Of a DNA stretch of 64,000 nt, positions 13,398-30,042 are shown piece by piece. The stretch's first letter is position 1; every line of letters starts with the position of its first letter. The notes below the pieces were generated by a model. That model worked only from the letters and a program-made list of their open reading frames with translations. It did no database searches and was not told the DNA's origin. The DNA is from Verrucomicrobiaceae bacterium (GTDB lineage: Bacteria > Verrucomicrobiota > Verrucomicrobiia > Verrucomicrobiales > Verrucomicrobiaceae), in contig JAEUHN010000040.1 in the NCBI GenBank assembly GCA_016795365.1, positions 124,001 to 188,000 of the forward strand. The letters run 5' to 3'. The translations under genes and the position numbers were made by a program.

Positions 13398-16385
13398 ATG
13401 CATCGCATTGCTCTTGGCCTGGCTTTGATCGCCTCTGCTGCTCTGGCTGATTCGATTCCCAAGGAACGACCTCGGGCACGTCCAGCGTCGGCGCTCACGG
13501 AGATTGCCCACTGGGAAAAGGGCAATGAGTTGCTCAAGAAGTTGAACGTGCCGTATGCCAAGATCCTCACGCCTGAGGAGGAGATGGCCACGTTCAAGCT
13601 CGCGCCCGGCTACCGCATCGAACTCGTCGCGGCCGAGCCGATGGTGCAAAAGCCGATCTTCTTCGAGTTCGATCCGCAGGGCCGGCTCTGGTGCCTCGAA
13701 TACCAGGGCTACATGCGCGACCTCGCAGGCAGCAACGAAGGCGATCCGATCTGCCGCTTCGTCGTGCTCGAAGACACCGATCACGATGGCAAGATGGACA
13801 AGCAAACGGTCTATCTCGACAAGCTCGTGATGCCCCGCTCGTTCGCCTTCGTGAAAGGCGGCGTGTTGCTGCAGGAGCCGCCGAAGCTCTGGTTCTGCGA
13901 GGACACCGACGGCGATCTGAAGTGCGACAAACGCACCGAAGTCGGCACCATGGGCGTGCCCGGCAATCCGCAACACACCGCCAACGGCCTGCGCTACGGC
14001 ATCGACAACTGGCTGCACTGCTCCGACTGGGCGAAGGACTACCAATGGAAGGACGGCAAGCTCATCGAGCGCGACACGATTCATCGCGGGCAGTTCGGAC
14101 AGACGTTTGATGAAACGGGCCGCTTCTTCTCCTGCTACGAAAACAAAGCGCTGCACGCCGACCTCATTCCCGCCGAGTTGCTCGTGAACAAACCGCTGCC
14201 TCGCGATCTGCTCTCGCAAGTCGTCAACGTAAGCGTCTGCGGCAACGCCCAGGAAGTCTTTCCCATCCGCGTCACGCCTGCGGTCACACTCGGCGCACTC
14301 GAACTCCGCGACGATGGCCGACTGCGCACTTACACCATCGTGAGCGGCATCTGCTGCTACGACGGCTATCAGTTCCCCGACGACGCGCGCGGCAACATGT
14401 TCATCCCCGAGTCTGGCGGCCATCTCATCGGTCGCCTCAAGCTCAAAGACGGCATCGTCCCCGAAGCCTCACGCTTCTATCCGCCGGAACAGGAATTCAT
14501 CGCCAGCACCGACGAACGCTTCCGCCCCGTGAACGCCCGCGTCGGCCCTGATGGCGCGCTCTACGTGGCCGACATGTATCACGGCATCATCGAGCACGTC
14601 ATCTTCATGGTCCCCTGGCTCACCGAGCAAATCAAAGCCCGCGGTCTCGACCAAGGCCAGGACCTCGGCCGCCTCTGGCGCATCGTCTCGACGGAGAAGC
14701 CGCTGAGTCGCGAGCCCGTGAATCTCGACGCGATGAAGTCAGACGAACTCGTGAAGCTGCTCGATCATCCGAACGGCTGGCATCGGCTGACGGCGCAGCG
14801 CTTGTTGATCGAGCGCGGCGATGCGGCGGTGGTGAAAGCATTCAAGCCAGCGACGGCGCTCGGCAAGTTGCAGCATCTGTGGACATCGGATGCGCTCGCC
14901 AGTGCATCGATCTCGATGATTCAGGCTGCTCTGGTTGATACAGATCCAAGAGTCCGCACTGCCGCCTGCCAACTGTCCGAAGGACGCATTGCAACTGAGT
15001 CACTGCTGCAAGTAGCAATGAGCGATGTGAACGAGCAAGTGCGTCTTGCTGCTGCTCTCAGTCATGGACATGCGTCGTTGAGCGTTATGGAGCAACTAGG
15101 CATCTTGGGGGCGAATCCCTTGGCACCATTCGAAGTGGTTGCGGTCAGCAGTCTCGCAGGGCACGAACTGGAGACGATAGAGTTGTGCCTGCGGAGGTGG
15201 ACAGTTGGCCTGCCTCCAATTGTTGGTTCGGGCAATTCGTCGCCGAAGTGGCCGTTGTCCAACGAGCGCACTGAGCATCTCATCGTGGTCTTGCTGCGAG
15301 CAGTCTTGGAACGAGGTGACACCAGTGAACTGATCTCGCTGGTAAAGCAGGCGGAGAGTAGCAATCTGATCGCTCGTGCCATCGCTACGCACGCTCGCAA
15401 GCCGATTCAGCTTCAGCAAGAGCCCGCCTTCGTGATGAAACTCATGCGCAGCACCGACGCGAAGAATCGCGATCTCGGCTTCCGCCTTGCCTCGGTGCTC
15501 ACGTGGCCGGGAGCGAAGGGAACATCGGCGTTCGTTTCGGCTGAAGCCGAAGCCACTCTGTCGCCCGCGCAACTCAAGCAACTCGACGACGGCCAGCGCA
15601 TCTACCAGCAGGTGTGCGCCGCTTGCCATCAACCGCATGGCATGGGCGCGGCGAATCTCGCGCCGCCGCTCGCAGGCAGCGATTGGGTCGCGGGTCCGCC
15701 CGAGCGCATCGCGCGAGTGGTGCTGCACGGCCTCTACGGTCCCGTGCAAGTCAGCGGTAACACCTTCAACCTCGTCATGCCCGGCATTGGCATGAGCGGA
15801 GTGTTGAACGACGATCAGATCGCCGCCGCGCTCAGCTACGTGCGCCGCGCGTGGGGCAACAACGCCTCTCTCGTCGATGCGTCACTCATCACGAAGGTGC
15901 GCGAGGACACGAAAGGCCGCACGCTGCCATGGACTGCGGACGAACTGCTCAACGTGAAGAGCGACACGAAGATCATCGCCATCAAAGCCGATGCGAAGGG
16001 CGACTTCATCCTACCGGCAAGCCAAGCCACAACGTTTGGTCAGAAGCTCGCGTATCGTCCGGCGCTCGATGTGCTGGCGCCGTGGCGCATCGCCAACGAT
16101 GTGGCCGAGTGGCACGTCGATGTCGCCAGCGAAGACGACTACGAAGTCACAGTGACACTCGCTGCCGACGATGCGTCCGCAGGCGACAAGTTCGCCCTCG
16201 AAGCCGAAAGCAGCCGCACCATTGGCACTGTGATCTCCAGTGGCGACTACGAGCACTTCGTCGAGGCATCGGCAGGCAGCATCCATTTGAAGGCTGGTGT
16301 GAATCGCCTTCTGCTCAAAGCCGAAGGGCCGCTCAAGCAAGAACTGGCCGATGTGCGCGCGGTGAGGTTGAAACGCGCGCGCTAG
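13398..16385 (+). CDS. PVC-type haem-binding CxxCH protein (beta-propeller, HEAT-like, cytochrome c)
   Basis: The 995-residue secreted protein starts at ATG 13398 (MHRIALGLALIASAALADS). Residues about 50-430 form a propeller like sugar or NHL dehydrogenases (GYRIELVAAEPMVQKP, FEFDPQGRLWCLEYQGY, NARVGPDGALYVADMYHG). A helical HEAT-like stretch follows (about 440-690), then a cytochrome c with CAACH at 740-744 and a likely Met ligand in PGIGMSG. The last ~130 residues look like a beta-sandwich. These large fusions are typical of Planctomycetes and Verrucomicrobia and are presumed periplasmic oxidoreductases; the substrate is unknown. Its TAG stop and that of the convergent lactonase gene interlock in one CTAG. 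Confidence 0.9.
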   Translation: MHRIALGLALIASAALADSIPKERPRARPASALTEIAHWEKGNELLKKLNVPYAKILTPEEEMATFKLAPGYRIELVAAEPMVQKPIFFEFDPQGRLWCLEYQGYMRDLAGSNEGDPICRFVVLEDTDHDGKMDKQTVYLDKLVMPRSFAFVKGGVLLQEPPKLWFCEDTDGDLKCDKRTEVGTMGVPGNPQHTANGLRYGIDNWLHCSDWAKDYQWKDGKLIERDTIHRGQFGQTFDETGRFFSCYENKALHADLIPAELLVNKPLPRDLLSQVVNVSVCGNAQEVFPIRVTPAVTLGALELRDDGRLRTYTIVSGICCYDGYQFPDDARGNMFIPESGGHLIGRLKLKDGIVPEASRFYPPEQEFIASTDERFRPVNARVGPDGALYVADMYHGIIEHVIFMVPWLTEQIKARGLDQGQDLGRLWRIVSTEKPLSREPVNLDAMKSDELVKLLDHPNGWHRLTAQRLLIERGDAAVVKAFKPATALGKLQHLWTSDALASASISMIQAALVDTDPRVRTAACQLSEGRIATESLLQVAMSDVNEQVRLAAALSHGHASLSVMEQLGILGANPLAPFEVVAVSSLAGHELETIELCLRRWTVGLPPIVGSGNSSPKWPLSNERTEHLIVVLLRAVLERGDTSELISLVKQAESSNLIARAIATHARKPIQLQQEPAFVMKLMRSTDAKNRDLGFRLASVLTWPGAKGTSAFVSAEAEATLSPAQLKQLDDGQRIYQQVCAACHQPHGMGAANLAPPLAGSDWVAGPPERIARVVLHGLYGPVQVSGNTFNLVMPGIGMSGVLNDDQIAAALSYVRRAWGNNASLVDASLITKVREDTKGRTLPWTADELLNVKSDTKIIAIKADAKGDFILPASQATTFGQKLAYRPALDVLAPWRIANDVAEWHVDVASEDDYEVTVTLAADDASAGDKFALEAESSRTIGTVISSGDYEHFVEASAGSIHLKAGVNRLLLKAEGPLKQELADVRAVRLKRAR

Positions 16386-17233
16386 CCCGCGAACGCATCA
16401 CTCGGCACACCCTTCGCACCGGGACGGCAGACGAAGAGACGACCGGCGAGCGGTTCTTCCAGCCCAGGCTTCAGACCCGTGGTGATGTAGAGATCGCCGA
16501 GGTCATCGCCGCCGAAGGCACACGCGGTCGTCTCAATGCAGGGGAAGTCTATCTGCTCCTGCACCTTGCGCGAGGCAGGATCGAAGCACACCACTTTCGC
16601 ACCATGGCAAAAGGCGATCCACAGGCGGTTTTCGCTGTCGATTGTCATGCCATCGGGCGACGAGGGATCGTCGCTGGTGTCCCAGATCACGCGTTCGTTC
16701 GTGATGGCGCTCGTCGCCTTGTCGAAGTCGAACGCGCGGATCTTCTTCGAAGGCGTGTCGATGTAGAACATCGTGCTCGCGTCCTTGCTCCAGATGATGC
16801 CGTTCGAGTTGGTGACGGGGCCGAACTTCTTCTCCACACGAAGGTCCGTGTGCAGGCAGTAGAGAGAACCTTCCGCTCGCTTCTTCAGGCAGATCGTGCC
16901 CGCCCAAAGGCGGCCCGCCGGATCGCACTTGCCGTCGTTGAAGCGATTGTCCGGCAGGTCCGGCTCTGGGTCGGCGATCTTCGTGCTCGCGCCGGTGGCC
17001 TCATCCAAGAAGAAGAAGCCATCATCGCCAGCCCACACGAGGCCGCCCGTCGCACGCGGCACCACGGTCCCCACACGCTGGCCGACGTTCCAGATCGTCT
17101 CGGCTCCCGACTTCGGATCGAACGCGAGGATCTTGTGCGCTTCGATATCCACGTAGAGGAGACGATTGGCATGCCAGAGGGGGCCTTCGCCCCAGACGGA
17201 GACGTGGTTGCTGATGGGTTCAGGTGTGATCAT
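16382..17233 (-). CDS. SMP-30/gluconolactonase/LRE family protein
   Basis: The 283-residue protein from ATG 17233 (MITPEPISNHVSVWGEGPLW) shows the six-bladed propeller signatures of SMP-30 lactonases: metal-ligand Glu in WGEGPLW, DNRFNDGKCDPAGRLWAGT, VTNSNGIIWS, and SPDGMTID with the expected Asn and Asp ligands. The family hydrolyses sugar lactones with a divalent metal in the cytoplasm. The frame continues upstream to 17314, but the added residues are not family-like. The nearby glucuronate isomerase and sulfatase are consistent with sugar-acid catabolism. Confidence 0.9.
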   Translation of the reverse strand: MITPEPISNHVSVWGEGPLWHANRLLYVDIEAHKILAFDPKSGAETIWNVGQRVGTVVPRATGGLVWAGDDGFFFLDEATGASTKIADPEPDLPDNRFNDGKCDPAGRLWAGTICLKKRAEGSLYCLHTDLRVEKKFGPVTNSNGIIWSKDASTMFYIDTPSKKIRAFDFDKATSAITNERVIWDTSDDPSSPDGMTIDSENRLWIAFCHGAKVVCFDPASRKVQEQIDFPCIETTACAFGGDDLGDLYITTGLKPGLEEPLAGRLFVCRPGAKGVPSDAFAG

Positions 17234-17530
17234 GAGATGAAAGGGAGAGCTAGAGGGTGATCGAAGAGAGGCAACTGGAAAGCCTTCCACCCCCATAATC
17301 CTATGAAAGCACACGAGTGGCCATGGACGCTCGAGGTATCGCTGACAGGCATCGAGCCATCATAATACAGTGATCTATTAAAAAGACTGTTCATTCGAGT
17401 CGGTTTGTTCTAGCCTGCATGGAAGCCGGACCTTTCCGGCTGCTTCCCTCGGTCCGTCCATCCTCACTGGCGCGCCCAGTGAGGGCAGATCTGGATCGGT
17501 CATCCATCCCTCAAACCTGACACCCTGATC
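17234..17530. promoter_or_regulatory. Divergent intergenic region with two hairpins before the caspase gene
   Basis: This 297-bp gap separates the lactonase (minus) from the caspase operon (plus). The stretch around 17365-17415 is A/T-rich and could hold the plus-strand promoter, although no box pair is convincing. Two stem-loops follow: AGCCGGA 17424-17430 with TCCGGCT 17435-17441, and a perfect 9-bp stem CCTCACTGG 17462-17470 with CCAGTGAGG 17476-17484. Neither has a T-run, so they look like 5'-UTR structures or a protein-binding palindrome rather than terminators. Confidence 0.45.
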
Positions 17531-18355
17531 ATGAGCAAAGGCATCTCACTGCACATCGGATTGAACAAGGTCGATCCCAAACACTACGGCGGACCGCAGA
17601 CTCTCGCGGGCTGCGAGAACGACGCGAAGGCCATGGAAAAGCTGGCCAAGACGCAAGGCTTCACTCCCTTGCGACTGCTCTCCAAGCAAGCCACTTCGAC
17701 AGCTGTGATGGACGCCATCACCAAGGCATCCGCCGAGCTAGTCGCAGGTGATGCCTTCTTCATCACCTATGCCGGACACGGCGGTCAGGTGCCCGACACC
17801 AACGGTGATGAGAACGACAAGTGGGATGAAACGTGGTGCCTCTACGATCGCGAACTGGTGGACGACGAACTCGCCGCCGCGTGGTCGAAGTTCGCCGCAG
17901 GCGTGCGCATCATCATGCTCTCCGACAGCTGCCACAGCGGCACCGTCAGCCGCCTCGCCAATCGCCCAGGAACGCCATCCGTCGGCAAGAAGGGCAAACG
18001 CTACCGCCTGCTACCGCCGGACGTGAACATGCGCACCTACCGCCACAACAAAGCGCTCTACGATGGCATCCAGGAGAAGTTCCGTGCGGGCAACAAGGTG
18101 AAGATCAAGGCTTCGGTGCTGCTCATCTCTGGCTGTCAGGACAATCAACTTTCCCAGGACGGCGACAAGAACGGCCTCTTCACCGAGACCATGCTCGAGG
18201 TGTGGGATTCGGGTTCGTTTGGTGGCGGCTATGTGTCCTTCCACAAGGAAGTTGTATCGTTCATGCCGCCGGATCAAACGCCTAACTACTCAGTGATCGG
18301 CAAAAAGAATGCATCGTTTGAAAAGCAAAAGCCCTTCACGCTCGCGGCTCCCTGA
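17531..18355 (+). CDS. Caspase-family (peptidase C14) protease, orthocaspase/metacaspase-like
   Basis: The 274-residue protein is little more than a single p20-like caspase domain. The early block LAGCENDAKAMEKLA is typical; the catalytic His is in TYAGHGGQ (His83) and the catalytic Cys in SDSCHSGT (Cys134). The acidic insert DTNGDENDKWDE between them resembles metacaspases, which often need Ca2+ and cleave after Arg or Lys. A second region (RTYRHNKALYDGIQEK) lies between the Cys and the later strand ASVLLISGCQDNQ. There is no signal peptide. It is the first gene of an apparent three-gene operon with SIR2 and STAND genes, which suggests an executioner or signalling protease controlled by the NTPase. 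Confidence 0.93.
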   Translation: MSKGISLHIGLNKVDPKHYGGPQTLAGCENDAKAMEKLAKTQGFTPLRLLSKQATSTAVMDAITKASAELVAGDAFFITYAGHGGQVPDTNGDENDKWDETWCLYDRELVDDELAAAWSKFAAGVRIIMLSDSCHSGTVSRLANRPGTPSVGKKGKRYRLLPPDVNMRTYRHNKALYDGIQEKFRAGNKVKIKASVLLISGCQDNQLSQDGDKNGLFTETMLEVWDSGSFGGGYVSFHKEVVSFMPPDQTPNYSVIGKKNASFEKQKPFTLAAP

Positions 18356-18370
18356 TCTGATTCGATCGCG

Positions 18371-18409
18371 GATGGCAGATGCCCCACGGTGAGCCAGGGC
18401 ACTGCCATC
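18371..18409. promoter_or_regulatory. Strong hairpin between caspase and SIR2 genes
   Basis: GATGGCAG (18371-18378), one bulged A, and TGCCC (18380-18384) pair with GGGCA (18397-18401) and CTGCCATC (18402-18409). This gives a 13-bp stem with a 12-nt loop. No T-run follows, so a classical terminator is unlikely. It could be a processing or attenuation element setting caspase against SIR2/STAND levels. Confidence 0.5.
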
Positions 18410-18458
18410 TGTCTTGAGCCCGCCTCGTGCTATCACCCGTTCTATTCCTCTTCCTCCC

Positions 18459-19622
18459 ATGCCTGTTCCTGCCGCACCCACTCCCGCTCACTACACGACG
18501 CTGGCTAACATTTGTTCGTCGGGCAACTTCGTTTTCTTCCTGGGCGCAGGCGTGAACTACGCGCAGCGTCAGGGCGGCAGCAAAAACTACCTGCCCACGG
18601 GAGCCGAGCTGGCGGTGAAGCTCGCTCAGGACTACGGCTTCCCGGATACGCAGACCGTGCTCAACTGGAAGACTCAGTGGCAGACGGTCAAAGGCAAACT
18701 TCAGGCGGCCATCGCCGCCCAGGATTGGTCGATCGTGGAGCAGGCCGCCGACCTCGCGTCCAAGCTTGTGTTTCCCAATCTCGCCCGGGTGAGCCAGTTT
18801 GCCGACACTATGCGACCGCCCTCTGCAACGACGCTGCAGGAAGCGCTGCACAACTTGTTCAGCCAGAGATACGAGCCCACCGACCTTCACGAAGTGCTCG
18901 CTCACATTCCCTCCCTGGTGACCTCGGTGAACCGTAAGCCGATCTTCATCACCACGAATTATGACACAGTGCTGGAGCACGCTCTCGCCGAGCGCAACGA
19001 GCCCTTCGATGTCGTCTATTATCGCGAGCCGCCCAATGCGGACGTGCCTTGCTACCGGCACTGGAAGAATGCTCACAAGCACTTCCGGGGCGAAGAGCGG
19101 TCGTTCTCCTCGACTCACACCGAGATCACGCCTTTGCAAAGCTATGCCGATCTGCCTCTCGGGGCCGATGAGGCGCTTCGCCCGGCGTCAGACCCCAAGT
19201 GCGCCCGCGTCATCATCGTCAAGATTCACGGCACGGTGGCTCCCGATGCATTTGATGAGAGCGGCTTCGTCATCACCAGCGATCACTATGTGAATTTCCT
19301 CCGTCGCGTGGAAGTGAGCAATCCCCTGCCCAAGTTCCTCGCCTCACGAATGATCCACTGCCACTTCCTCTTCCTGGGCTATGGATTGCAGGACGTTAAC
19401 ATCCTCGTGATTTGCCAGAATCTCTGGGGACAGCGCACCAAGAAGACGCTGAACAACTGGGCGGTAAAAGTGAATGCGACGGAGTTCGACGAGAAATACT
19501 GGGCCTCCGAAGAGCATGGCAAAGTGACCATGTTCAACTGCGACCTCACCGCTTATGCGCAAGCCCTCAAAGCAGCTCTGCCGCCTGATCCGCTGGCTGT
19601 GCCACCCACTCCCATCAGTTGA
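18459..19622 (+). CDS. SIR2-like domain protein (predicted NADase effector)
   Basis: The 387-residue protein carries the SIR2-like fold: FFLGAG at 26-31 (NAD phosphate loop), ITTNYD at 164-169 with the expected Asn167, KIHGT with His257 as the likely catalytic His, and FLFLGYGLQD near 303-312. Members of this branch in phage defence hydrolyse NAD+ rather than deacetylate proteins. No second recognisable domain was seen; the N-terminal 20 residues are Pro/Ala rich. ATG 18459 (MPVPAAP) is chosen because the upstream frame would enter the hairpin. The stop is six bases before the STAND gene, a strong sign of co-transcription. Confidence 0.9.
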   Translation: MPVPAAPTPAHYTTLANICSSGNFVFFLGAGVNYAQRQGGSKNYLPTGAELAVKLAQDYGFPDTQTVLNWKTQWQTVKGKLQAAIAAQDWSIVEQAADLASKLVFPNLARVSQFADTMRPPSATTLQEALHNLFSQRYEPTDLHEVLAHIPSLVTSVNRKPIFITTNYDTVLEHALAERNEPFDVVYYREPPNADVPCYRHWKNAHKHFRGEERSFSSTHTEITPLQSYADLPLGADEALRPASDPKCARVIIVKIHGTVAPDAFDESGFVITSDHYVNFLRRVEVSNPLPKFLASRMIHCHFLFLGYGLQDVNILVICQNLWGQRTKKTLNNWAVKVNATEFDEKYWASEEHGKVTMFNCDLTAYAQALKAALPPDPLAVPPTPIS

Positions 19623-19628
19623 TCGCCC

Positions 19629-22600
19629 ATGAGCACCTCTGAAGCCACACCCCTTTGCCCATACGTCGGCCTCGCTCCATTTCGCCCCGAGCATGCACCC
19701 TACTTCTGTGGGCGTGAGACGGAGACAGAAGTCCTCGTCGCCAATGCCAGCGTCTCCTCCGTGACGATCCTCTACGGCCCCTCGGGTTGTGGGAAGTCAT
19801 CGCTGCTGGGCGCAGGTCTCATCCCCCGCATTCACGCCGCACCACTCGAAGCAGAGTCGTCGGGTGCATTGCCCGCGCACCCTGTCGTTGTCATGGCACG
19901 CGACTGGTCCAATGATCCGCTCAAGAGCCTGGAACGTGCCGTCAAACGTGCCCTCAAGCCCTGGCCGGAGTGTGAAGGCCTGGAGTGGCCGCAGGCGTGG
20001 TTCGCACGCCACCCATCAGCACCTCAGCTCATCCTCGCGATGGATCAGGTGGAGGAACTGTTCGTCCAGCATCCCGAACTGGCCGAGGCCAGCGCCGCGC
20101 AGATCATTCGCACCGCAGACGCCTATGCCAAAAGCACTGCCATGCCCGAGCCATCATCGGCCGCCTTGCGCTGGGCGGGGCTCATCACAGCTTTCATTCG
20201 CGATCCGCGCTGCGGCGTGAACACGGTCCTCAGCCTGCGCGAAGACTGCCTCGCGGATCTCGATGTGATCAAGGCGGCGCTGCCCCGCTTGTTCGACACC
20301 ATGATCCGCGTGGACAGCCTGGATGAAGCCGCCACCGAGCGCGCCATCCGCGAGCCTCTGCTGCGCTTCAATCAACTGATGCGACCACCGCAGCCCGTGG
20401 AGATCCACGACGAACTCGTGAAAGCCCTCCTCGCGGATGCCGACCTGCGACTTGATCCTCCCTCCGCTCAACGTTCGTCCGCGAGCACGGTCACCCGTTA
20501 CGCCACGCCTTTCCTTCAGCTCTCTCTGGAGCGCCTTTGGAAGGAAGACATCGATACCGCGAAGGGCACTGCACTTACCTTCGGCACCTTCAAGGATCAC
20601 GGCTTCGCCGCAGGCATCCGGCGCCAGCATGTCAATGGCGCTCTCGAAGCCGCCTTCAAAGACCGCCCCGACTATCGACAGGTCTTTGCACGCGCCAGCA
20701 CCGAACTGGTCACTCGCACCCAAAAGATCTCGTGGCTCGCCTCCGAACTTGCCGAGAAGCTCAACAAAACCCGTGGTCCTGATCCGGCCAATCCTGAGGT
20801 CCAGCAGGTCAAGGTGGAGCCGGCAGAACTAGCGGCATTCTTCCGGTCGCTCGAACAGCCGACTCGCATCATGCGGGAGATGTTCTACCCCGATGCGCAG
20901 CTCCTTCCCGACACCGAAAGCGCCAAGGAGACAAGGGACGGGTTGTTCCAGATCGCCCACGACAGGCTCATTGCCGACATCCTCGCGTGGCGGGAAACCT
21001 ACGACAAAGAGGAGGCTGCCAAAGCGGCAGCCGTGAAAGCCCGACTCGATGCACAGCAGGATTGGATCAATGAACAAAAGAAGCTGAGCGACGAGAAAGA
21101 GACTGCACGTCGTCGCCTGAAGTATGGCGGCATCGGTGCCGGACTCGCGCTGCTGGCCGTGGGCATTCTTGCTGGGGTGTTTTACAATGCAAACCTCGCC
21201 TCCCAATCTCAGACCCAGAAACTGAAAGGCAGGGTGGATGAACTCGATGACACGATCAAAGAGACGACCGAACAACGAACGCTCACCCAATCGAGCATCA
21301 CTCAGATCTTCCAACAGGAGTCGCCGGCTTCAGCCTCGACGTCAGCTGCGCCCACCACGGTGCTTGCGTCACCCGAAGCGACGAGCAAGCTGGACAGCAC
21401 CAGTGCTCAACTCGTTGCCCAGGTAGCCGCTCAGGCCGCCGACACCGAGCGCCTCCAGGCTGAACTCGACAAGCTCGCGAGCGTTCGACTTCAGCAGGAA
21501 CTCGTGACCGCTCAGCAGCGTGTGGACGATGCCTATCAATGGCTGTTCTTCAAAAGCTCGGATGCGGAGCTGGCGCGACGCATTACCAAGTCCCTCGAAG
21601 CATCAAAGGCTAGCATCGAGTCCATCAAGCTGCCCACGGGTGAAGGCGGTGATCAAGAAGATACAGATCGACTGGCACTCGAGAAGGAGCGTGAAGCGCG
21701 GCTGGGATTCATCGTCTCCGCCATCAAGTCGCTGGAGCAAAAGCTGGCACCCGTGCTGACGGCCGCACCCGTGACGGATGAAGCGCTTGCGGTGCTTCCT
21801 CATGGCGATCAAGTGTGGTCCGTGCAGTTCGCTCCGCAAATGATCGCAAATCTGGGATCGCCCAGCAGCAGCACGGTGAAAGGCCAGCTCCTCACCGCTG
21901 GCAGCGATGGCAAGGTGAGGCTGTGGACGCCCGATGGTAAGGCACCTGGCGGCGTGAGTGATCCAGTGCTGTTCTTTGCCAAGGAAGGTTTTTCAATGGC
22001 GACCTTCAATCGTGATGGGACGAAGATCGCCGCCGCAGGGAATGACAGCAATGTGTATCGCTTTGACGTCAAAGCCTGGAAGCTGCTGCCTGGCTACACC
22101 TACCACACCGATGTGGTGACATGCGTCGCGATCAGTCCCTCACTCGACAAACCACGGCTCGCTTCGACCAGTGCGGACCGTCGTTGCCGCGGGGTTTCCT
22201 GGGATTCCAACTTCACCAAACTCAAGAGCGGTCAGTATGGTGTGATGACGTGGTGCGCCTTTGACAACATCCCTGATGATAAACTGTCCATCATTGTGTC
22301 GTGCGACGATGGCATGCTGCGGCTTTACGATTTCGATGATCACTACATCCGATGGCAGCATAGCCTTGGAGAACCGATTCGCCGCGCCTCATTCAGCCCG
22401 CGTGATGGGCTCGTGGTTGCCGCCGCTGGCAGTCGTGCCTTCATCATCAATGCCAACGGCCCGGAGAAGGGATCGGTCAGCATCACTCCTCAACCGCTCT
22501 CACCTGGGCTGCAAACACCCGTGTGGTTCGCCAGCTTCCGTCCACGCCCCGCCGATGGCCCGACCAATACGACCGGCGGTGAGGTAGAAACCTTTGTTCT

Positions 22601-22970
22601 GTGCTGTGGCGACGGCAGCGCCCGCATCGGCACTGTCAGCGACGCTGGCACGGCACTCACCGTGCAAGAAACAGGCAAGCTCGTGCGACCCGACGGGAAG
22701 CCCTTGCACACGGCCGCGATTCGCGACGCTGCGTGGTGGCGTCCCGCCGACTTGACCAACAAGACGACGTTGCTCGCACTCGCATCAGAGGACGGCACCG
22801 CGAGTGTTTGGAACGTCACGAATCCCGCAGCACCCAAGCTGGTTCACCACCTTCGCGGCCACCAGGGCCGCATCTGGCGAATCGCCTGGAACGAAGAAGG
22901 CACGCGCATCGCAACCGCCAGCGAGGACAAGACCGCGCGTCTCTGGCAGTTTGATCCCACAGGGCTCTGA
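19629..22970 (+). CDS. Membrane-spanning STAND NTPase (nSTAND1-like) with C-terminal WD40 repeats
   Basis: The 1113-residue protein opens with the nSTAND1 signature CPYVGLAPFRPEHAPYFCGRE, Walker A GPSGCGKSS at 50-58 and Walker B LILAMDQVEELF at 134-145. A helical region leads to a charged coiled coil (about 455-492), one transmembrane helix (about 499-520), a second coiled, Thr/Ser/Gln-rich stalk (about 525-680), and WD40-type blades from about 722 to the end (VWSVQFAPQ, then GRIWRIAWNEEGTRIATASE and TARLWQF). STAND proteins switch from ADP- to ATP-bound oligomers on ligand sensing. Arg-rich residues before the helix predict a cytoplasmic NTPase and a periplasmic propeller. It probably acts as the sensor for the caspase and SIR2 effectors. 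Confidence 0.9.
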   Translation: MSTSEATPLCPYVGLAPFRPEHAPYFCGRETETEVLVANASVSSVTILYGPSGCGKSSLLGAGLIPRIHAAPLEAESSGALPAHPVVVMARDWSNDPLKSLERAVKRALKPWPECEGLEWPQAWFARHPSAPQLILAMDQVEELFVQHPELAEASAAQIIRTADAYAKSTAMPEPSSAALRWAGLITAFIRDPRCGVNTVLSLREDCLADLDVIKAALPRLFDTMIRVDSLDEAATERAIREPLLRFNQLMRPPQPVEIHDELVKALLADADLRLDPPSAQRSSASTVTRYATPFLQLSLERLWKEDIDTAKGTALTFGTFKDHGFAAGIRRQHVNGALEAAFKDRPDYRQVFARASTELVTRTQKISWLASELAEKLNKTRGPDPANPEVQQVKVEPAELAAFFRSLEQPTRIMREMFYPDAQLLPDTESAKETRDGLFQIAHDRLIADILAWRETYDKEEAAKAAAVKARLDAQQDWINEQKKLSDEKETARRRLKYGGIGAGLALLAVGILAGVFYNANLASQSQTQKLKGRVDELDDTIKETTEQRTLTQSSITQIFQQESPASASTSAAPTTVLASPEATSKLDSTSAQLVAQVAAQAADTERLQAELDKLASVRLQQELVTAQQRVDDAYQWLFFKSSDAELARRITKSLEASKASIESIKLPTGEGGDQEDTDRLALEKEREARLGFIVSAIKSLEQKLAPVLTAAPVTDEALAVLPHGDQVWSVQFAPQMIANLGSPSSSTVKGQLLTAGSDGKVRLWTPDGKAPGGVSDPVLFFAKEGFSMATFNRDGTKIAAAGNDSNVYRFDVKAWKLLPGYTYHTDVVTCVAISPSLDKPRLASTSADRRCRGVSWDSNFTKLKSGQYGVMTWCAFDNIPDDKLSIIVSCDDGMLRLYDFDDHYIRWQHSLGEPIRRASFSPRDGLVVAAAGSRAFIINANGPEKGSVSITPQPLSPGLQTPVWFASFRPRPADGPTNTTGGEVETFVLCCGDGSARIGTVSDAGTALTVQETGKLVRPDGKPLHTAAIRDAAWWRPADLTNKTTLLALASEDGTASVWNVTNPAAPKLVHHLRGHQGRIWRIAWNEEGTRIATASEDKTARLWQFDPTGL

Positions 22971-22983
22971 GACCGAGAAGTGG

Positions 22984-24819
22984 CTATGCCTCGGTCAGCC
23001 GGAAATATGGGCTGCCGTAATGCTGATAGGCACCCCAGGTGGAGGTGCCACCTTTTGCGTTCGCCGAACAAAGCCTGCCCCTGATCATGGCCTGACGGAT
23101 TTCGCCTCCTTCCAGCAGCACCTTGTAAAATCCAATCGCGAATGCCCTCGCGGCCTCTGAGCCCACCGGCCATCCGGTGCAGACATAGTTGCGAGCGCCG
23201 AGCTTGAAAAATGCCTCCGCCAGTCCCGCTGCTACCAGCGTATTTGGCGCTGCATTCACAGCGATGCCACCACTGGTGCATGAGTTCGAAACCACCAAAG
23301 GAGGTATTCTCGGCAGCCGTGAGAGAAGGGCGGGATTCAACCACAAGTCCTGTCCTTTGCTGAACAGCCACCCAGACCGCGTGGGATCACTTTCATTGAA
23401 GTCACTGTGCCCGGCGAAGTGCAGCACATCATACCGCTCGCGCATGAGGCGGCTGATGACGATCGGCAGCCGTGCGCGGGTTGGTCCCAGAAGCGCCACC
23501 ACCTCAATGTCCCCCTGAGCCGCCAGCAGCGCTTTCAATTCCTCACCTTCTTTCCGGGCATCGGCCAATGGCGCGTCGCTGGCCGGGTCTGCCACGATGA
23601 GAACGCGCAGGCTCTTCCTCTGCGTCACGCGCGTCTGCAATACCGGCACATTCTGGCTGCGGAACTGCCTTGTGATGCCGCGCTGGTCACTCAAGGCGAC
23701 GAAGTTCTCCGCCCATGCGGACGCATCACTCGCACCATCGACCGCCTTCCCTTCCTCAGTCACCGGTGATGCTGCGAAACCCTGATCCGGCACGGCAAGC
23801 AGCTCCCATGGCAGCCTGGCCGCAGCGGCATCCAGCGTCAGCACCACGGGCGCTGCACTCTTGAAGAGATGCCCCTCCAAGTCGCATGGGATCAGCAACT
23901 GACGCAGCACCTGGCACCACTCCTTCTGCTCATCCGAGTCGCCATGGAGACCGGCATTCTCACTCACCATGCGAAGCACCGAGGGATCGATTGCCACCTG
24001 TCTTTCGGGGATGGAGGCACTGTCCGTCAACGCGGCAAAAGTCAGGCCTGCGGCGCTCGTCGATACCATGATGCGAGTCGGCGCACCTTTGTTGCTGGAG
24101 GTCTTCGAAGGCGGCAGGCGTTTTTTGCGAACGATCTCACTCGCCTTCTTCCTCAATGCTGCGGCCACCTTCGCCGCAGCATCGCTCACTTGTTTCTCGT
24201 CAGCCGGGACGATGGAAAGGTTCTTGCGCGGTGATGGTCCCATCTCGCCAAGCTCCTCACGGATCATGAGGAACCGCTCAGGATCATACTCCACAATCGT
24301 CACACGCTGCAGCCATTCGCTGCTGGACATCGACATCTTGTAGATGCCTGCCAGCCATGCATCCAAGGCCATCGAGAGACTCATGTTGCCCTCACCACTG
24401 CCGATGAGCACCGTGGCGAGATGCCGTCTCTTGCTCTGGCTCAGCGACCAGCAAAAGTTCTTCACCATGGTCTCGAGCTGCGAGGGGCCCAGACTGCCAA
24501 AATCTCCAAGCCCGGCAATCGAAGCCCAGCATCCATTCGTGAACGGAAGGGTGTAGGGCTCACCCAGCCCCAGGTTCAAAAGCCCTCGGCGTGTCATGCG
24601 GCCAATCACACCCACGTTGCCATCCTTCATCGGACTGCCAATGTCCTTGCTGATGGCTTCGTCGAGATACCATTCCGCGCTTTGCGGCTCGACCCCGGTG
24701 TAGTGCCCGGCTGCAACGACATCCACCGGCGGATTGCCCTTGCCCTGCATGCGGGTCACATCACCCCACTCGACTGCGACCTCAATGACCGGTGGGGCTT
24801 TGGCAGAAGGCTTGCTCAT
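22984..24819 (-). CDS. CHAT-domain protease with macro/M17-N-like N-terminal domain
   Basis: The 611-residue protein ends in a CHAT (caspase-like) domain: YDVLHFAGHSDF with His471 and PPLVVSNSCTSGG with Cys514 form the expected dyad, followed by FFKLGARNYVCTGWPV. Residues about 10-160 (VDVVAAGHYTGVEPQSAEW, TRRGLLNLGLGEPYTLPF, HLATVLIGSGEGNMSLSMAL) resemble the macro-like N-terminal domain of M17 leucyl aminopeptidases; this match is by eye. The middle (about 190-330) is unassigned. The gene converges on the STAND gene with a 13-bp gap and starts 81 bp after uxaC, so it could have its own promoter. It is plausibly a second protease arm of the same system. Confidence 0.88.
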   Translation of the reverse strand: MSKPSAKAPPVIEVAVEWGDVTRMQGKGNPPVDVVAAGHYTGVEPQSAEWYLDEAISKDIGSPMKDGNVGVIGRMTRRGLLNLGLGEPYTLPFTNGCWASIAGLGDFGSLGPSQLETMVKNFCWSLSQSKRRHLATVLIGSGEGNMSLSMALDAWLAGIYKMSMSSSEWLQRVTIVEYDPERFLMIREELGEMGPSPRKNLSIVPADEKQVSDAAAKVAAALRKKASEIVRKKRLPPSKTSSNKGAPTRIMVSTSAAGLTFAALTDSASIPERQVAIDPSVLRMVSENAGLHGDSDEQKEWCQVLRQLLIPCDLEGHLFKSAAPVVLTLDAAAARLPWELLAVPDQGFAASPVTEEGKAVDGASDASAWAENFVALSDQRGITRQFRSQNVPVLQTRVTQRKSLRVLIVADPASDAPLADARKEGEELKALLAAQGDIEVVALLGPTRARLPIVISRLMRERYDVLHFAGHSDFNESDPTRSGWLFSKGQDLWLNPALLSRLPRIPPLVVSNSCTSGGIAVNAAPNTLVAAGLAEAFFKLGARNYVCTGWPVGSEAARAFAIGFYKVLLEGGEIRQAMIRGRLCSANAKGGTSTWGAYQHYGSPYFRLTEA

Positions 24820-24900
24820 GCCGCGAGTATTTCAAACTCGCGCATGAGCATCAACGCCTAAGTTCTGCGCCTCAAGGAAATCGTGTGAGGCAAATCCTTG

Positions 24901-26307
24901 TCACGCTGTCTTCAAGCCGAGGTAAGCTTTGGCGTTGGCGAAGCAGATGTTGCGAACCATGGAGCCGACCATGTCGTAGTCGGCGGGAACCTCGCCACTC
25001 TCGATGTCCTTGCCGATGAGGTTGCACAGCGTGCGGCGGAAGTATTCGTGGCGCGGGAAGCTCATGAAACTGCGTGAGTCCGTCAGCATGCCGATGAAGC
25101 GGCTGAGCAGGCCAAGATTGCTGAGCGCATTCATCTGCCACTCCATCGCTTCCTTTTGATCGAGGAACCACCAGCCGCTGCCGAACTGAATCTTCCCCGG
25201 AATGGTGCCGTCCATGAAATTGCCGATCATCGTCGCGAAGACGTAGTTCAGCCCTGGGTTCACGTTGTAGAGCACGGTCTTTGGCAGCGCGTTCTCGGTG
25301 TCGAGCGTGTCGAGGAATCTCGACAATGGCTCTGCCTGCGGCCAGTCACCAATGCTGTCCACACCCACGTCGGCACCAATCTGCTTGGCGAGTCGTGTGT
25401 TGTTATTGCGGATCGGTCCGATGTGAAGCTGCATCGTCCAGCCCTTCGCCGCGTTCAGGCGGCCGACGTGGAGCATGATGTTGCTGGCAAACTGATCCAT
25501 CTCAGCCAGCGAAGCCGCCGTGCCGCTCCTTGCCTTCGCGAAGATGCGCTCGGCCTCCGCGTCGCTGACCGGGTTCGCATGAGCCACATTCAGACCATGA
25601 TCGCTGAGACGACCTCCGATCGCATGGAAATCATCGTGACGCTTCGCCAGCGCGGCGAGGAGCTGCCCATAGCTGGAGACCTCAATGCCGCTGGTCGCAC
25701 TCAGCTTGTCGCACCACGCATTCCACGCCTCGGGCTGATGCACGCTGTAGCTCTTGTCCGGACGGAAGGTGGGATACACGCCGATCTCAAAGCCATCCTT
25801 CGCGCACTGCTCGTGCCAGGGCAGCGGGTCGGCAGGATCGTCGGTCGTGCAGAGGGCTTTCACCTTTTGGGAACGCAGGATGTTCTTTGCGCTCATTTCG
25901 GGCTTGGCTAATGCGGCTTCGGTTTGTTCCCAGATGGCAGCGGCGGTGCTTTCGTTTAGCAGCGTGTCGATGCCGAAGTAGCGCTTCAGCTCGATGTGGG
26001 TCCAGTGGTAGAGTGGATTGCGCAACGTGTGTGGCACCGTCTTCGCCCAGGCCATGAACTTGTCGCGCGGGCTCGCCTTGCCGGTGATGAGATCCTCGGG
26101 CACACCATTGCAGCGCATCGCACGCCACTTGTAGTGATCGCCTTCCAGCCAGATTTCGAAAAGGTTCTTGAACTGACGATCCTGCGCGATGTCCTTCGGC
26201 GGCAGGTGATTGTGGTAATCGAGGATGGGCTCGTCCTTAGCGAACTCATGGTAGAGGCGGCGGGCAGCTTGATTGGAAAGAAGGAAGTCGTCGTGGATGA
26301 AGGACAT
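24901..26307 (-). CDS. uxaC: Glucuronate isomerase
   Basis: The 468-residue protein matches UxaC along its length: ILDYHNHLPPKDIAQDRQF with the metal-binding HxH, FEIWLEGDHYKWRAMR, WTHIELKRYFGI, LCTTDDPADPLPWH, and the C-terminal block DSRSFMSFPRHEYFRR. It isomerises D-glucuronate to D-fructuronate (or galacturonate to tagaturonate) in the cytoplasm. ATG 26307 (MSFIHDDFLL) is the family start. The other uronate-pathway genes are not in the window. Together with the SMP-30 lactonase and sulfatase it suggests use of uronic-acid-rich, sulfated polysaccharides. Confidence 0.95.
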   Translation of the reverse strand: MSFIHDDFLLSNQAARRLYHEFAKDEPILDYHNHLPPKDIAQDRQFKNLFEIWLEGDHYKWRAMRCNGVPEDLITGKASPRDKFMAWAKTVPHTLRNPLYHWTHIELKRYFGIDTLLNESTAAAIWEQTEAALAKPEMSAKNILRSQKVKALCTTDDPADPLPWHEQCAKDGFEIGVYPTFRPDKSYSVHQPEAWNAWCDKLSATSGIEVSSYGQLLAALAKRHDDFHAIGGRLSDHGLNVAHANPVSDAEAERIFAKARSGTAASLAEMDQFASNIMLHVGRLNAAKGWTMQLHIGPIRNNNTRLAKQIGADVGVDSIGDWPQAEPLSRFLDTLDTENALPKTVLYNVNPGLNYVFATMIGNFMDGTIPGKIQFGSGWWFLDQKEAMEWQMNALSNLGLLSRFIGMLTDSRSFMSFPRHEYFRRTLCNLIGKDIESGEVPADYDMVGSMVRNICFANAKAYLGLKTA

Positions 26308-26456
26308 GGCGCGCATTGTGCGCACTCCGGCCACGATGCCAAGAGCCTTTGCATTTCCCCTGAACGATCAGGCCTGCGGAGCATCCAAGGAAGGGCGGCG
26401 GACGGGATTTCCATGTTGCCCGGCCCGTCGATTCCTGCCTATAACCGAGCGCTCTC

Positions 26457-29400
26457 ATGAAGTTGCCTGTCACTCTCTCACTGCTCGCAATCGTCCTACA
26501 GGCATGGCCCGCGCAAGCGCAGCAGAGCTACACGGGAGGCTTGCTCCAGCAGGATTTTAACTCGCTCCCAATGGCGGGCGCGTTCGACTTCATGGATGTG
26601 GGCCTGAGCAATTTGAAAGGCCCGGTGCAACTGGCCGCATCGCCAGTCACTGCCACGAACGCAGCAGGCTGGAGCATGTATGCGCGCGTGGGTTCTCCCA
26701 TGCAGTTGCGGATCGACAATGGCAACAGCACCACGGCGAGCGCCTACTCGTATGGCCCTGTGGCAGGGGTGGATCGTGCCTTGGGCTCACTCGGAGGCTC
26801 GCACGTTGCGAACCTGGGCTGGCGGCTGATCAACAACACCGGGCAAACGATCACGCAGTTCACCCTCACTTATCGAGGCGAGCAGTGGCGCAATGGTGGC
26901 AGCCTGAACGTGAACAAGCTCGACTTCGCCTATCGCATCACTTCCACCGTAACGACGGACATCGACAACTCGAGTTCCTACACCTTGGTGCCAGCTCTCG
27001 ATTTCACATCGCCTGTATCACTGGCCAATGGCTTCGCCTTGAATGGCAACTCTAGCGCGAATCGCACGGAGATCTCCGCCACCATCTCGGGCATCAACTG
27101 GGCTAATGGACAGCTCCTGATCCTTCGCTGGCGTGATACGGACGAGACCGGCTCCGATGATGGTCTCGCACTCGACGACGTCATGTTCTTCGCTCCCACA
27201 ACCGCCAGCCTGCCAGCAGTCGTCTCGATCACCCCAGCCCATGCGAGCACTCGCGTGCTACCGACTTCGCCCGTCATCGTCAGCTTCAATCAACCAGTTA
27301 CCGTCTCAGGTTCGTGGTTTGAGATCACGGGAAGTGTGAGTGGCGGCATGACCGCGACCGTCACCAACGCAGGCCCGATGCGCTACACGATCACTCCTTC
27401 CGTTCCCTTCGTGGCGGGTGAAACGATCACCGTGCGCGTCATCTCCACGCAGGTGACCAATGCCAGCGCTCAACCCATGACCGCGGATGTGACGAGCGCC
27501 TTCGCCATCCAACCCTCATCGGCGAGCATCACCGCCATTCACGACATTCAGAGCAGCGATGGCCACAGCCCGCTCGCCAGCGCCGAGGTGACAGTGCAGG
27601 GTGTGGTGGTGGGCGATTTTCAGGGTGCGTCGCCAGCACTGGGCGGCTTCTTTTTGCAAGAGGAGGATGGCGATGCTGATGCCGATCCACTGACCTCCGA
27701 AGGCCTCTGGATCACCGACCAAGGCAATCCTCTCGCTGTGGATGTCGCCGTGGGCGATCTCGTGCAGGTCACAGGCATTGCCTCGGAGTCCGGCAGCCTC
27801 ACTCAGCTGCTCAATCTCACTGCCGTGACGAATCTTGGCCCGTCGGCATTGCCTACCGCAACGATGGTCAACCTGCCTGCCACCAGCACCGTGATGATGG
27901 AGCGCTTCGAGGGCATGAGAGTGGAGTTCCCCCAGACCCTGAGCGTCACGAGCAACAGCGGTAGCAATGGCTCCACCGATACGTTCGCCCGATTTGGCGA
28001 GTTGCTGCTGAGTGCGAACGGACCGCTCGTTAGCCCCACGGAGGTGATCGACCCCAATGATTCGCCCGCGACCGGCACGAGCATCACAGGACGTTCGAAT
28101 GTGCCAGCGATTCGCGCCTTGGAGAGCACTCAAACTCTGCGCATGATCGCTCTCGATGACGCCTCCACTGCTGACACACCGGATCCCACGCCCTTCCTCA
28201 ATGCTCAAGGCACACGACGTGTGGGTGATACAGTGACCGGGCTCGCGGGCATCCTCACTTACAGCAATGGAGCCTACCGTGTGCAGCCCACAGGCGCGGT
28301 GCCTTTTCTGGATGCCAATCCACGACCAGCAGCTCCACCGATGATTACTGGCAGACTGAAAGTGGCGTCGATGAACGTGCTGAACTACTTCACGACTTTC
28401 GGAGGGGCGAATGATCGCGGAGCCAGCAACGGCGATGAGTTCCAGCGGCAGAAGGACAAGGTCATCGCTGCACTCGTCGGTCTGGATGCCGACATTCTCG
28501 GACTCATTGAGATCCAAAACACCAGCATCGCAGTGAACGACATCCTCAGCGCGCTCAATGCTGCCATGGGCAGCTCGGTTTACGCTGTGGTGGCTGATCC
28601 GGCCACGCCTGCATCCGGCGATTTCATCCGCACCGTGCTGCTCTACCGCCCTTCCAAGGTGAGCCTTTTTGGTCCCTGCTACGCCGACTCCGATGCCGTC
28701 TGGAACACTCCCAATCCGCTGCGCAATCCGATCGCTCAGGTGTTCATCGAAAACAGCACAGGCGAACGTTTCATTGCCTGCCTCAACCATTGGAAGTCAA
28801 AGTCATCCACGGGAGCCACGGGTCTGAACAACGACCAGAACGACGGCCAGTCAGCCTTTAACGAGCAGCGCAAACAACAAGCGAGCCGTGTGCTCACTTG
28901 GTTGCAAGGCATCTGCGCCACAGCGGGTGACTACGACGTGATCATCATGGGCGACCTCAACTCTCTGGGCCAGGAGGACCCTCTCGACGTGCTGCGCAAT
29001 GGTGGCTTCAGCGATCAGGGCGAGCGCTTTCAGCCAGGTGATTACAGCTATCGCCTGGGCGACACACGCGGGCGGCTGGACCATGCTTTTGCCTCATCAA
29101 CCATGGCCGCGCAGACCACAGACGCCCGCCACTGGCATATCAATGCCGACGAGCCTGCGTTCTACGACTACAACACCGAGGGCAAGACTGCTGCACAGCT
29201 GTTGATCAATGTCGGCACACCCTTTCGCAGCAGTGACCACGATCCAGTCTTGATCGGTGTCAGCCTTGCACCTCAACCAACCACCTTCGCGATGTGGACC
29301 GCGGCCAGCTCGGTCAGTGGCGCCGCAGCAGAAGCGGACAATGATCAGGATGGCATGCGGAATCTGATGGAGTTCGTCCTCGTCGCGAATCCTTCTCTTG

Positions 29401-29645
29401 CCGATCCGCAACGGCTCCCCGTCGCCACGCGCTCAGGCAATACCATGCATCTGGACTATCGCATGCGCACGAATGCCAGCGGCATCACGGTCACTCCGCA
29501 GTGGTCGGAAGACATGGCCACTTGGTATGACCTCATCGGCCAGTTCGTGACCACGGTGGATGCCGTGACAGCCAATCATCGCGCCTCAGTGGAAACCACC
29601 GGCAAGGGGCGCGTGTTCATGCGGTTGCGAGTCTCGATGCCGTAG
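26457..29645 (+). CDS. Secreted ExeM/NucH-like nuclease (endonuclease/exonuclease/phosphatase family)
   Basis: The 1062-residue protein has a signal peptide (MKLPVTLSLLAIVLQAWPAQA). A beta-rich N-domain (about 25-255) leads to an SbsA-type Ig-like domain (VVSITPAHASTRVLPTSPVI) and an OB-like segment (HDIQSSDGHSPLASAEVTVQ), as in ExeM/NucH extracellular DNases. The catalytic EEP domain follows (KVASMNVLNYFTT near 633, GLIEIQNT, IIMGDLNSLGQED, SSDHDPVLIG). The tail holds a DNDQDGMRNLMEF calcium-type element and a beta domain common in verrucomicrobial secreted proteins. It probably degrades extracellular DNA for nutrients. It is divergent from uxaC across 149 bp. Confidence 0.9.
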   Translation: MKLPVTLSLLAIVLQAWPAQAQQSYTGGLLQQDFNSLPMAGAFDFMDVGLSNLKGPVQLAASPVTATNAAGWSMYARVGSPMQLRIDNGNSTTASAYSYGPVAGVDRALGSLGGSHVANLGWRLINNTGQTITQFTLTYRGEQWRNGGSLNVNKLDFAYRITSTVTTDIDNSSSYTLVPALDFTSPVSLANGFALNGNSSANRTEISATISGINWANGQLLILRWRDTDETGSDDGLALDDVMFFAPTTASLPAVVSITPAHASTRVLPTSPVIVSFNQPVTVSGSWFEITGSVSGGMTATVTNAGPMRYTITPSVPFVAGETITVRVISTQVTNASAQPMTADVTSAFAIQPSSASITAIHDIQSSDGHSPLASAEVTVQGVVVGDFQGASPALGGFFLQEEDGDADADPLTSEGLWITDQGNPLAVDVAVGDLVQVTGIASESGSLTQLLNLTAVTNLGPSALPTATMVNLPATSTVMMERFEGMRVEFPQTLSVTSNSGSNGSTDTFARFGELLLSANGPLVSPTEVIDPNDSPATGTSITGRSNVPAIRALESTQTLRMIALDDASTADTPDPTPFLNAQGTRRVGDTVTGLAGILTYSNGAYRVQPTGAVPFLDANPRPAAPPMITGRLKVASMNVLNYFTTFGGANDRGASNGDEFQRQKDKVIAALVGLDADILGLIEIQNTSIAVNDILSALNAAMGSSVYAVVADPATPASGDFIRTVLLYRPSKVSLFGPCYADSDAVWNTPNPLRNPIAQVFIENSTGERFIACLNHWKSKSSTGATGLNNDQNDGQSAFNEQRKQQASRVLTWLQGICATAGDYDVIIMGDLNSLGQEDPLDVLRNGGFSDQGERFQPGDYSYRLGDTRGRLDHAFASSTMAAQTTDARHWHINADEPAFYDYNTEGKTAAQLLINVGTPFRSSDHDPVLIGVSLAPQPTTFAMWTAASSVSGAAAEADNDQDGMRNLMEFVLVANPSLADPQRLPVATRSGNTMHLDYRMRTNASGITVTPQWSEDMATWYDLIGQFVTTVDAVTANHRASVETTGKGRVFMRLRVSMP

Positions 29646-29646
29646 C

Positions 29647-30042
29647 TCAGCCTCGCCGACGCTTGCGCTTCACGATCACGAGATGCTCGGGAGCTGTCAC
29701 CACGATCTGAGGTTTTTCCTTGTAGAGCTTCACCACGCCCGAGATGCGCACGACGCGATCCAGGTAGGCACGCCATGACGATTCATCACTCTTCCGTGCC
29801 AATGGAAACGGCACCAAAGCGGTGAAGGCATGTTCGGGATAGATGCCGCCGAAGTTCAGAAACACTGAGCCCTTAGGACCAAAGCCAACATCTGTGACCA
29901 TGCCTTCCACACAGACATGCTCGCCCACGTAGGCAGCGGCTTCTTCGAAGGCAATGACCGGCAGATCCTCGCCATGCGCGAAGACCAGCGCCATCATCAG
30001 CATCACGAGCACGCGAAAAGTCACGCGCTGGTCATACCTCAA
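29647..30042 (-). CDS. Hypothetical secreted OB-fold-like protein
   Basis: The 131-residue protein begins with a signal peptide (MRYDQRVTFRVLVMLMMALVFAHG, split here by function: basic start then hydrophobic core). The mature part has YVGEHVCVEGMVTDVGFGPK, SVFLNFGGIYPEH, and VVRISGVVKLYKEKPQIVV. This is the strand pattern of small OB-fold nucleic-acid-binding proteins annotated beside nucleases. The tail is very basic (VKRKRRRG). It converges with the nuclease gene with one base between the stops. An OB fold next to an extracellular DNase suggests, without proving, DNA handling outside the cytoplasm. Confidence 0.65.
   Translation of the reverse strand: MRYDQRVTFRVLVMLMMALVFAHGEDLPVIAFEEAAAYVGEHVCVEGMVTDVGFGPKGSVFLNFGGIYPEHAFTALVPFPLARKSDESSWRAYLDRVVRISGVVKLYKEKPQIVVTAPEHLVIVKRKRRRG

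What the first reader, a model, noticed from the sequence alone, without database searches (positions are those of the whole stretch)
22984..24819. CHAT protease fused to a macro/M17-N-like domain next to a SIR2 NADase
Residues about 10-160 of the CHAT protein look like the macro-fold N-terminal domain of leucyl aminopeptidases (HYTGVEPQSAEW, TRRGLLNLGLGEPYTLPF, LATVLIGSGEG). Macro domains often bind ADP-ribose derivatives. A SIR2 enzyme in the same locus could release ADP-ribose or a cyclic form. Inference: the N-domain might let the protease sense the NADase product, linking the two arms by a small molecule.
Basis: inference. Interest (0 to 1): 0.68.

Follow-up and report, generated by a model that had tools for sequence, protein, structure and literature searches.

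The report
Macro-fold CHAT protease beside SIR2 cassette
A bacterial self-destruct-type protease (a CHAT protein, relative of caspases) really does carry a domain folded like those that bind ADP-ribose, but the idea that it reads a signal made by the neighbouring NAD-cleaving SIR2 enzyme is unproven and weakened by a sister species that keeps the protease without that neighbour.

Summary
The ORF at 22984-24819(-) encodes 611 aa: a macro/M17-N-fold domain (residues ~9-199), a helical linker, and an intact CHAT protease (301-603; H471, C514 invariant in all 49 family members aligned). The fold claim is confirmed. AlphaFold2 of the domain alone (pLDDT 92) matches AF1521 macro (Z 17.9), macroH2A1.1 (17.1) and PepA M17-N (16.8). 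By sequence the family is M17-N-like. It also has conserved loops, GHYxGxxP and GxGxGN, at macro ligand-loop positions. Canonical ADP-ribose residues are not kept: the loop-1 Asn region is GHY, and the GDI-type Asp is in 26/48 rows.

Most relatives are longer: LCAT-like alpha/beta hydrolase-M17N-CHAT, in scattered phyla. A caspase is near 19 of 54. An NADase follows in 5 of 54: SIR2+nSTAND1 three times, TIR once, DUF4062 once.

The SIR2-to-protease signal is not shown. A STAND gene separates CHAT from SIR2, and CHAT is on the opposite strand. A congener keeps CHAT (89% identity, dN/dS ~0.1) at the same site without the caspase-SIR2-STAND block (17288-22930). Related SIR2-nSTAND1 cassettes occur without it. 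Best reading: a caspase-fold protease gated by a conserved pocket for an unidentified ligand, beside a separable caspase-SIR2-nSTAND1 cassette.

The parts
24223..24795 (-). M17-N/macro-fold N-terminal domain of the CHAT protein (residues ~9-199)
   Evidence: AF2 pLDDT 92 for residues 1-207; VIA-align AF1521 Z 17.9, PepA Z 16.8; M17_N over gathering cut-off in relatives
24685..24708 (-). conserved loop GHYxGxxP (residues 38-45), at the macro loop-1 position
   Evidence: G38 and Y40 48/48, G42 47/48, P45 45/48 rows
24385..24402 (-). conserved loop GxGxGN (residues 140-145), aligned with macro loop 2; no comparable conserved loop in the M17 aminopeptidases compared
   Evidence: G140 47/48, G142 44/48, G144 46/48, N145 40/48; aligned with macro loop 2 by hhalign, weak score
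22984..24819 (-). M17N-CHAT protein, 611 aa; CHAT protease domain residues 301-603 (His471, Cys514)
   Evidence: PF12770 E 1.9e-27; H471 and C514 in all 49 aligned members
17531..18355 (+). caspase-like peptidase (Peptidase_C14), YAGHG and DSCHSG motifs
   Evidence: PF00656 E 1.1e-20; motifs
18414..19622 (+). SIR2_2-family protein; GAG, TTNYD, KIHG and GYG motifs present
   Evidence: PF13289 E 6.2e-20; closest PADLOC model ThsA, E 3.9e-14; alignment with L009/L012/L055 SIR2
19629..22970 (+). nSTAND1 NTPase with C-terminal WD40 propeller
   Evidence: PF20703 E 2.6e-33, WD40 E 6.2e-22
17288..22930 (.). caspase-SIR2-STAND block present here and absent from the syntenic site of the congener L005/G001
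   Evidence: blastn: window 11630-17287 and 22931-30000 align to L005 across a gap of about 300 bp

Best explanation
This is a short member of an unnamed family of caspase-fold proteases whose usual layout is LCAT-like alpha/beta hydrolase - M17N/macro-fold domain - CHAT. Shown: domain content, macro fold, conserved loops at the macro ligand-site positions, invariant protease dyad, recurring caspase neighbours, and conservation of the gene in a congener without the SIR2 cassette. Inferred: the M17N/macro domain is a regulatory module that binds a ligand in a re-tooled macro-type pocket (loops GHYxGxxP, GMGxxGRF, GxGxGN) and gates or clusters the CHAT protease. Because the same loops are kept in members with no NADase nearby, the ligand is more likely a generally available nucleotide-like or stress metabolite than one made only by the adjacent SIR2. 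The neighbouring caspase-SIR2-nSTAND1 cassette is most likely its own effector unit: the WD40/nSTAND1 protein senses invasion or damage and switches on NAD-depleting SIR2 and the caspase. It works alongside the CHAT protease when both are present.
For: Domains; fold; conserved loops; invariant H471/C514 and intact SIR2 and caspase motifs; hydrolase extension in most relatives, 43 ORFs over 1000 aa of which 37 have the [AG]HS[ML]GG motif; caspase near 19 of 54 loci and near three further copies; CHAT kept without SIR2 in the congener with dN/dS 0.056/0.58; caspase-SIR2-nSTAND1 (L147) and SIR2-nSTAND1 pairs (L122) without M17N-CHAT in the same bacterial family.
Against: No ligand, activation or phage-defence data. 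Conserved glycines can be purely structural. SIR2+nSTAND1 directly follow the CHAT gene, same strand, in two phyla (L009, L012, L055), which argues that the two can form one functional unit.
Confidence: 0.5

Rival explanations
1. One reading: the SIR2 enzyme, when triggered by the STAND sensor, makes ADP-ribose or a cyclic or conjugated form that binds the macro domain and switches on the CHAT protease (analogous to Thoeris systems in which a TIR product is read by a macro-domain or caspase-like effector).
For: Macro fold; three NADase classes recur beside family members: SIR2 in L009/L012/L055, TIR in L017, DUF4062 in L033 (DUF4062 reported as a TIR-like NADase in PMC13174449). [quoted passage not shown] TIR-caspase defence exists (Rousset 2025, cited in PMC13174449; details from my own knowledge).
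Against: Congener keeps CHAT without SIR2 at the site, though it has SIR2-STAND pairs elsewhere in the genome; only 5 of 54 relatives have an adjacent NADase; canonical ADPR residues not conserved. SIR2 defence proteins more often deplete NAD than signal (own knowledge).
Confidence: 0.2
2. The M17N/macro domain is only a structural or oligomerisation module, as the N-domain is in hexameric M17 aminopeptidases (own knowledge), positioning CHAT and, in longer relatives, the hydrolase.
For: Sequence kinship is to M17-N rather than to ADPR-binding macro domains.
Against: The most conserved residues fall in strand-end loops corresponding to the macro ligand site; the M17 rows aligned here show no conserved GxGxGN-like loop.
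Confidence: 0.25
3. The CHAT gene and the caspase-SIR2-STAND cassette are unrelated neighbours: the cassette came in (or was lost in the congener) beside a pre-existing gene, as in a defence island, and they do not work together in this genome. (This concerns the locus, so it can hold together with any reading of the N-domain.)
For: Opposite strands; 5.6-kb presence/absence between congeners; cassettes with other partners in L147 and L122.
Against: Partner types that recur in operons with this CHAT family elsewhere (caspase, SIR2, nSTAND1) are just those in the cassette.
Confidence: 0.35

Closest known systems
CHAT/separase-type caspase-fold proteases (Craspase TPR-CHAT/Csx29, SAVED-CHAT)
   Same: CHAT catalytic domain with His/Cys dyad; structural matches to separase Z up to 23.6, Craspase TPR-CHAT Z 21.7, SAVED-CHAT Z 19.3. 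As in SAVED-CHAT, a sensor-like domain precedes CHAT.
   Different: The N-domain is M17N/macro fold, not TPR or SAVED; no CRISPR or CBASS genes were found among the genes examined.
Thoeris effectors (TM-macro ThsA; TIR-caspase type IV)
   Same: A macro-fold domain or a caspase-like protease acting downstream of an NADase is the proposed logic (PMC11204291; Rousset 2025).
   Different: No TIR domain in the four proteins of this locus; SIR2 instead; macro domain is M17-N-like and lacks the canonical ADPR residues; CHAT rather than C14 carries the macro fold.
Caspase plus alpha/beta-hydrolase pairs in bacterial ternary conflict systems (Kaur et al. 2020, PMC7159879)
   Same: Caspase and alpha/beta hydrolase repeatedly occur together; here hydrolase-M17N-CHAT lies next to a caspase in Nitrospira, Hymenobacter, Thermomicrobiales and others.
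   Different: The hydrolase is fused through an M17N domain to CHAT; no VMAP/MoxR core seen among the genes examined; hydrolase missing from the window copy. 'CHAT', 'M17' and 'SIR2' do not occur in that paper's main text.
M17 leucyl aminopeptidase N-terminal domain
   Same: Fold and sequence kinship.
   Different: No catalytic M17 domain; loops GHYxGxxP and GxGxGN are conserved here and not in the M17 rows compared.

Membership tests
CHAT domain (PF12770) | profile match over curated cut-off | tested here: met
   96.9 bits vs 24
CHAT domain (PF12770) | catalytic His and Cys | tested here: met
   H471 and C514 in all 49 aligned members
Peptidase_M17_N (PF02789) | profile match over curated cut-off | tested here: inconclusive
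   no hit for the window protein; relatives L043, L034, L038, L050 and L023 pass it
Macro fold | macro-type fold | tested here: met
   AF1521 Z 17.9, 2.4 A, 161 residues
ADP-ribose-binding macro domain (PF01661) | sequence profile | tested here: not met
   no PF01661 hit at E<=10; hhalign with 23 macro sequences prob 4%
ADP-ribose-binding macro domain (PF01661) | adenine-site Asp (GDI/GDIT) and loop-1 Asn | tested here: not met
   D20 present in the window but only 26/48 rows; the loop-1 Asn region is GHY; residue roles from own knowledge
ADP-ribose-binding macro domain (PF01661) | binding of ADP-ribose | not testable with these tools
   needs a binding assay
M17 leucyl aminopeptidase | C-terminal metallopeptidase domain | tested here: not met
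   only CHAT found C-terminally
Thoeris | TIR-domain ThsB partner | tested here: not met
   no TIR in the CHAT, caspase, SIR2 or STAND proteins; SIR2 has weak ThsA similarity only
SIR2_2 NADase | NAD-binding and catalytic motifs | tested here: met
   GAG, TTNYD, KIHG, GYG conserved with other SIR2_2; activity not tested

The most novel reading that the evidence does not exclude
A CHAT (separase/caspase-fold) protease family in which an M17N-derived macro-fold pocket directly senses an NAD-derived nucleotide produced by interchangeable NADases (SIR2, TIR or DUF4062), giving a small-molecule link from STAND/NADase sensing to proteolysis and, in full-length members, to lipid or ester hydrolysis.
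Probability: 0.18. Interest if true: 0.78.

Novelty: new variant of a known kind. Interest (0 to 1): 0.48.

Why it matters
It points to an apparently undescribed protease architecture (hydrolase-M17N/macro-CHAT, spread across Verrucomicrobiota, Acidobacteriota, Nitrospira, Chloroflexi, Hymenobacter and others) in which a metabolic-enzyme accessory domain has become the likely control module of a caspase-fold protease. It gives a testable question: what fills the conserved macro-type pocket, and does an NADase make it? The congener that keeps the protease without the SIR2 cassette is a natural control.

Tried and rejected
Direct Pfam, NCBIfam, PADLOC and PDB-sequence searches of the window protein gave only CHAT plus weak noise; the M17-N signal needed relatives. 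Hhalign to macro domains was not significant (prob 4%), to M17 73%, and supports only a loop-2 correspondence. Considered and rejected: that SIR2 is directly adjacent or co-transcribed with CHAT here (a STAND gene and opposite strand intervene); that NADase linkage is one inherited event (scattered on the tree, though the shuffles do not exclude chance); that the cassette is foreign by composition (GC 60.0% vs window 60.2%) or bounded by mobile-element repeats (no clear terminal repeats). The SIR2 row from G001 was read on the wrong strand and is disregarded. Literature searches found no paper describing M17N-CHAT, but the library lacks most subscription papers. Plasmid search found only weak CHAT relatives.

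Full report
What is there. The - strand ORF 22984-24819 encodes 611 aa. Pfam finds CHAT at 301-603 (E 1.9e-27) and nothing else. On the + strand lie a Peptidase_C14 caspase (17531-18355), a SIR2_2 protein (18414-19622) and an nSTAND1-WD40 protein (19629-22970), whose stop is 14 bp from the CHAT stop. The CHAT gene is thus convergent with the block, and a STAND gene separates it from SIR2.

The macro/M17-N claim. One genome scan gave 54 relatives. Eight were scanned with Pfam: Peptidase_M17_N is over the gathering score in L034, L043, L050, L038 and L023, below it in L012 and L024, and not reported in L055. A profile of 48 N-domains finds M17 aminopeptidases first among PDB sequences (2.5e-6) and macro domains only at 0.25-1.6. 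AlphaFold2 of the full protein gives pLDDT 82.5 and of residues 1-207 pLDDT 92.0, pTM 0.89. Against solved structures the domain matches AF1521 (Z 17.9, 2.4 A, 161 residues), macroH2A1.1 (17.1), P. putida LAP (17.1) and PepA (16.8), all roughly tied.

Is there a pocket? Of 48 rows, G38, Y40 and G103 are invariant; G42, P45, G105, G140, G142 and G144 are in 44-47; N145 in 40. These fall at the ends of strands 34-41, 97-106 and 133-136, where macro domains hold their ligand loops; hhalign puts GSGEGN on macro loop 2 (weak). The M17 rows compared do not conserve such a loop. But the Asp of the GDI motif is in only 26/48 rows and the loop-1 Asn region of ADPR binders is GHY. I conclude that a conserved ligand site is plausible and that ADP-ribose as the ligand is not indicated by sequence. 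No coordinates were available for a pocket calculation.

Family anatomy. Most relatives are 1040-1300 aa with an N-terminal LCAT-like alpha/beta hydrolase; 37 of 43 ORFs over 1000 aa have the [AG]HS[ML]GG motif. The window copy, its congener L005, and L038 and L023 start near the M17N domain (the L023 contig begins close upstream). In 387 genomes of the window's phylum the M17N profile matches 6, of which one (G169) is an M17-length ORF and one (G430) a partial match.

Neighbours. The window caspase matches 19 of 54 loci, usually just upstream on the same strand, and occurs near three further copies. SIR2_2 plus nSTAND1 directly follow the CHAT gene in L009, L012 and L055 (two phyla; gaps about 40-75 bp), a TIR gene plus a STAND-TPR gene follow in L017 (436 bp gap), and a DUF4062-TPR gene in L033 (DUF4062 was reported as a TIR-like NADase, PMC13174449). 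NADase proximity is therefore recurrent but a minority. On a quick tree it needs 4 changes (shuffled mean 5.6; 37 of 500 as low), so it is neither one clade nor strongly clustered. Several contigs end near the gene, so the counts are minima.

Decisive comparison. In the congener (G001/L005) window 11630-17287 and 22931-30000 align at 86-89%, but 17288-22930, that is caspase, SIR2 and nearly all of the STAND gene, is replaced by about 300 unrelated bases. CHAT is kept at 89% identity with dN 0.056, dS 0.58. A caspase homologue is not found in G001 (87% complete). G001 does hold two SIR2-nSTAND1 pairs elsewhere, so action in trans is not excluded. In the same bacterial family, L147 has caspase, SIR2, nSTAND1-WD40 and a second caspase without CHAT. 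The SIR2-STAND unit and the M17N-CHAT gene are thus separable modules.

Mechanism. Shown: domain content, fold, loop conservation, intact active-site motifs, modular neighbourhood. Inferred: the M17N domain gates CHAT through a ligand; nSTAND1-WD40 senses a trigger and activates SIR2 and the caspase; together they would form a cell-suicide or defence module. [quoted passage not shown]

Known relatives. Kaur et al. 2020 (PMC7159879) note that caspase domains in VMAP systems are always accompanied by an alpha/beta hydrolase; the pairing is echoed here. No paper found describes M17N-CHAT.

Noticed in passing
window 17288-22930 vs L005 9889-10191: Clean presence/absence of a caspase-SIR2-STAND block between two congeners, with no GC shift and no obvious mobile-element ends.
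   Followed up: partly
L147:2270-10538 (G039): Caspase protein with an uncharacterised N-terminal ~280 aa (begins MKIMFVHGIGF, hydrolase-like by eye, no Pfam hit) + SIR2 + nSTAND1-WD40 + second caspase in one direction: a related cassette without CHAT.
   Followed up: partly
L033:4061-11311: Patatin-TPR-S gene, then hydrolase-M17N-CHAT, then DUF4062-TPR in Nitrospira: phospholipase, protease and TIR-like NADase side by side.
   Followed up: no
L017:10596-16149: TIR protein followed by a 1453-aa ParA-like/NB-ARC-nSTAND-TPR protein downstream of hydrolase-M17N-CHAT.
   Followed up: no
L121:7435-11149 (own genome, G000:C44): Clostripain (C11) gene overlapping a second, divergent CHAT protein with a weak transglutaminase-core match: another paired caspase-fold protease locus.
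   Followed up: no
L050, L052-L054 (Hymenobacter): Caspase gene upstream of hydrolase-M17N-CHAT (fused to an Amidase_2 domain where tested, L050), with an ECF sigma factor and an outer-membrane barrel gene downstream (tested in L053).
   Followed up: no
L122:3118-11053 (G001:C43): Two SIR2-nSTAND1 pairs in tandem in the congener, one SIR2 45% identical to the window's.
   Followed up: partly
L026:3506-11555: Adenosine-deaminase-like 917-aa protein just upstream of a 1755-aa hydrolase-M17N-CHAT relative.
   Followed up: no
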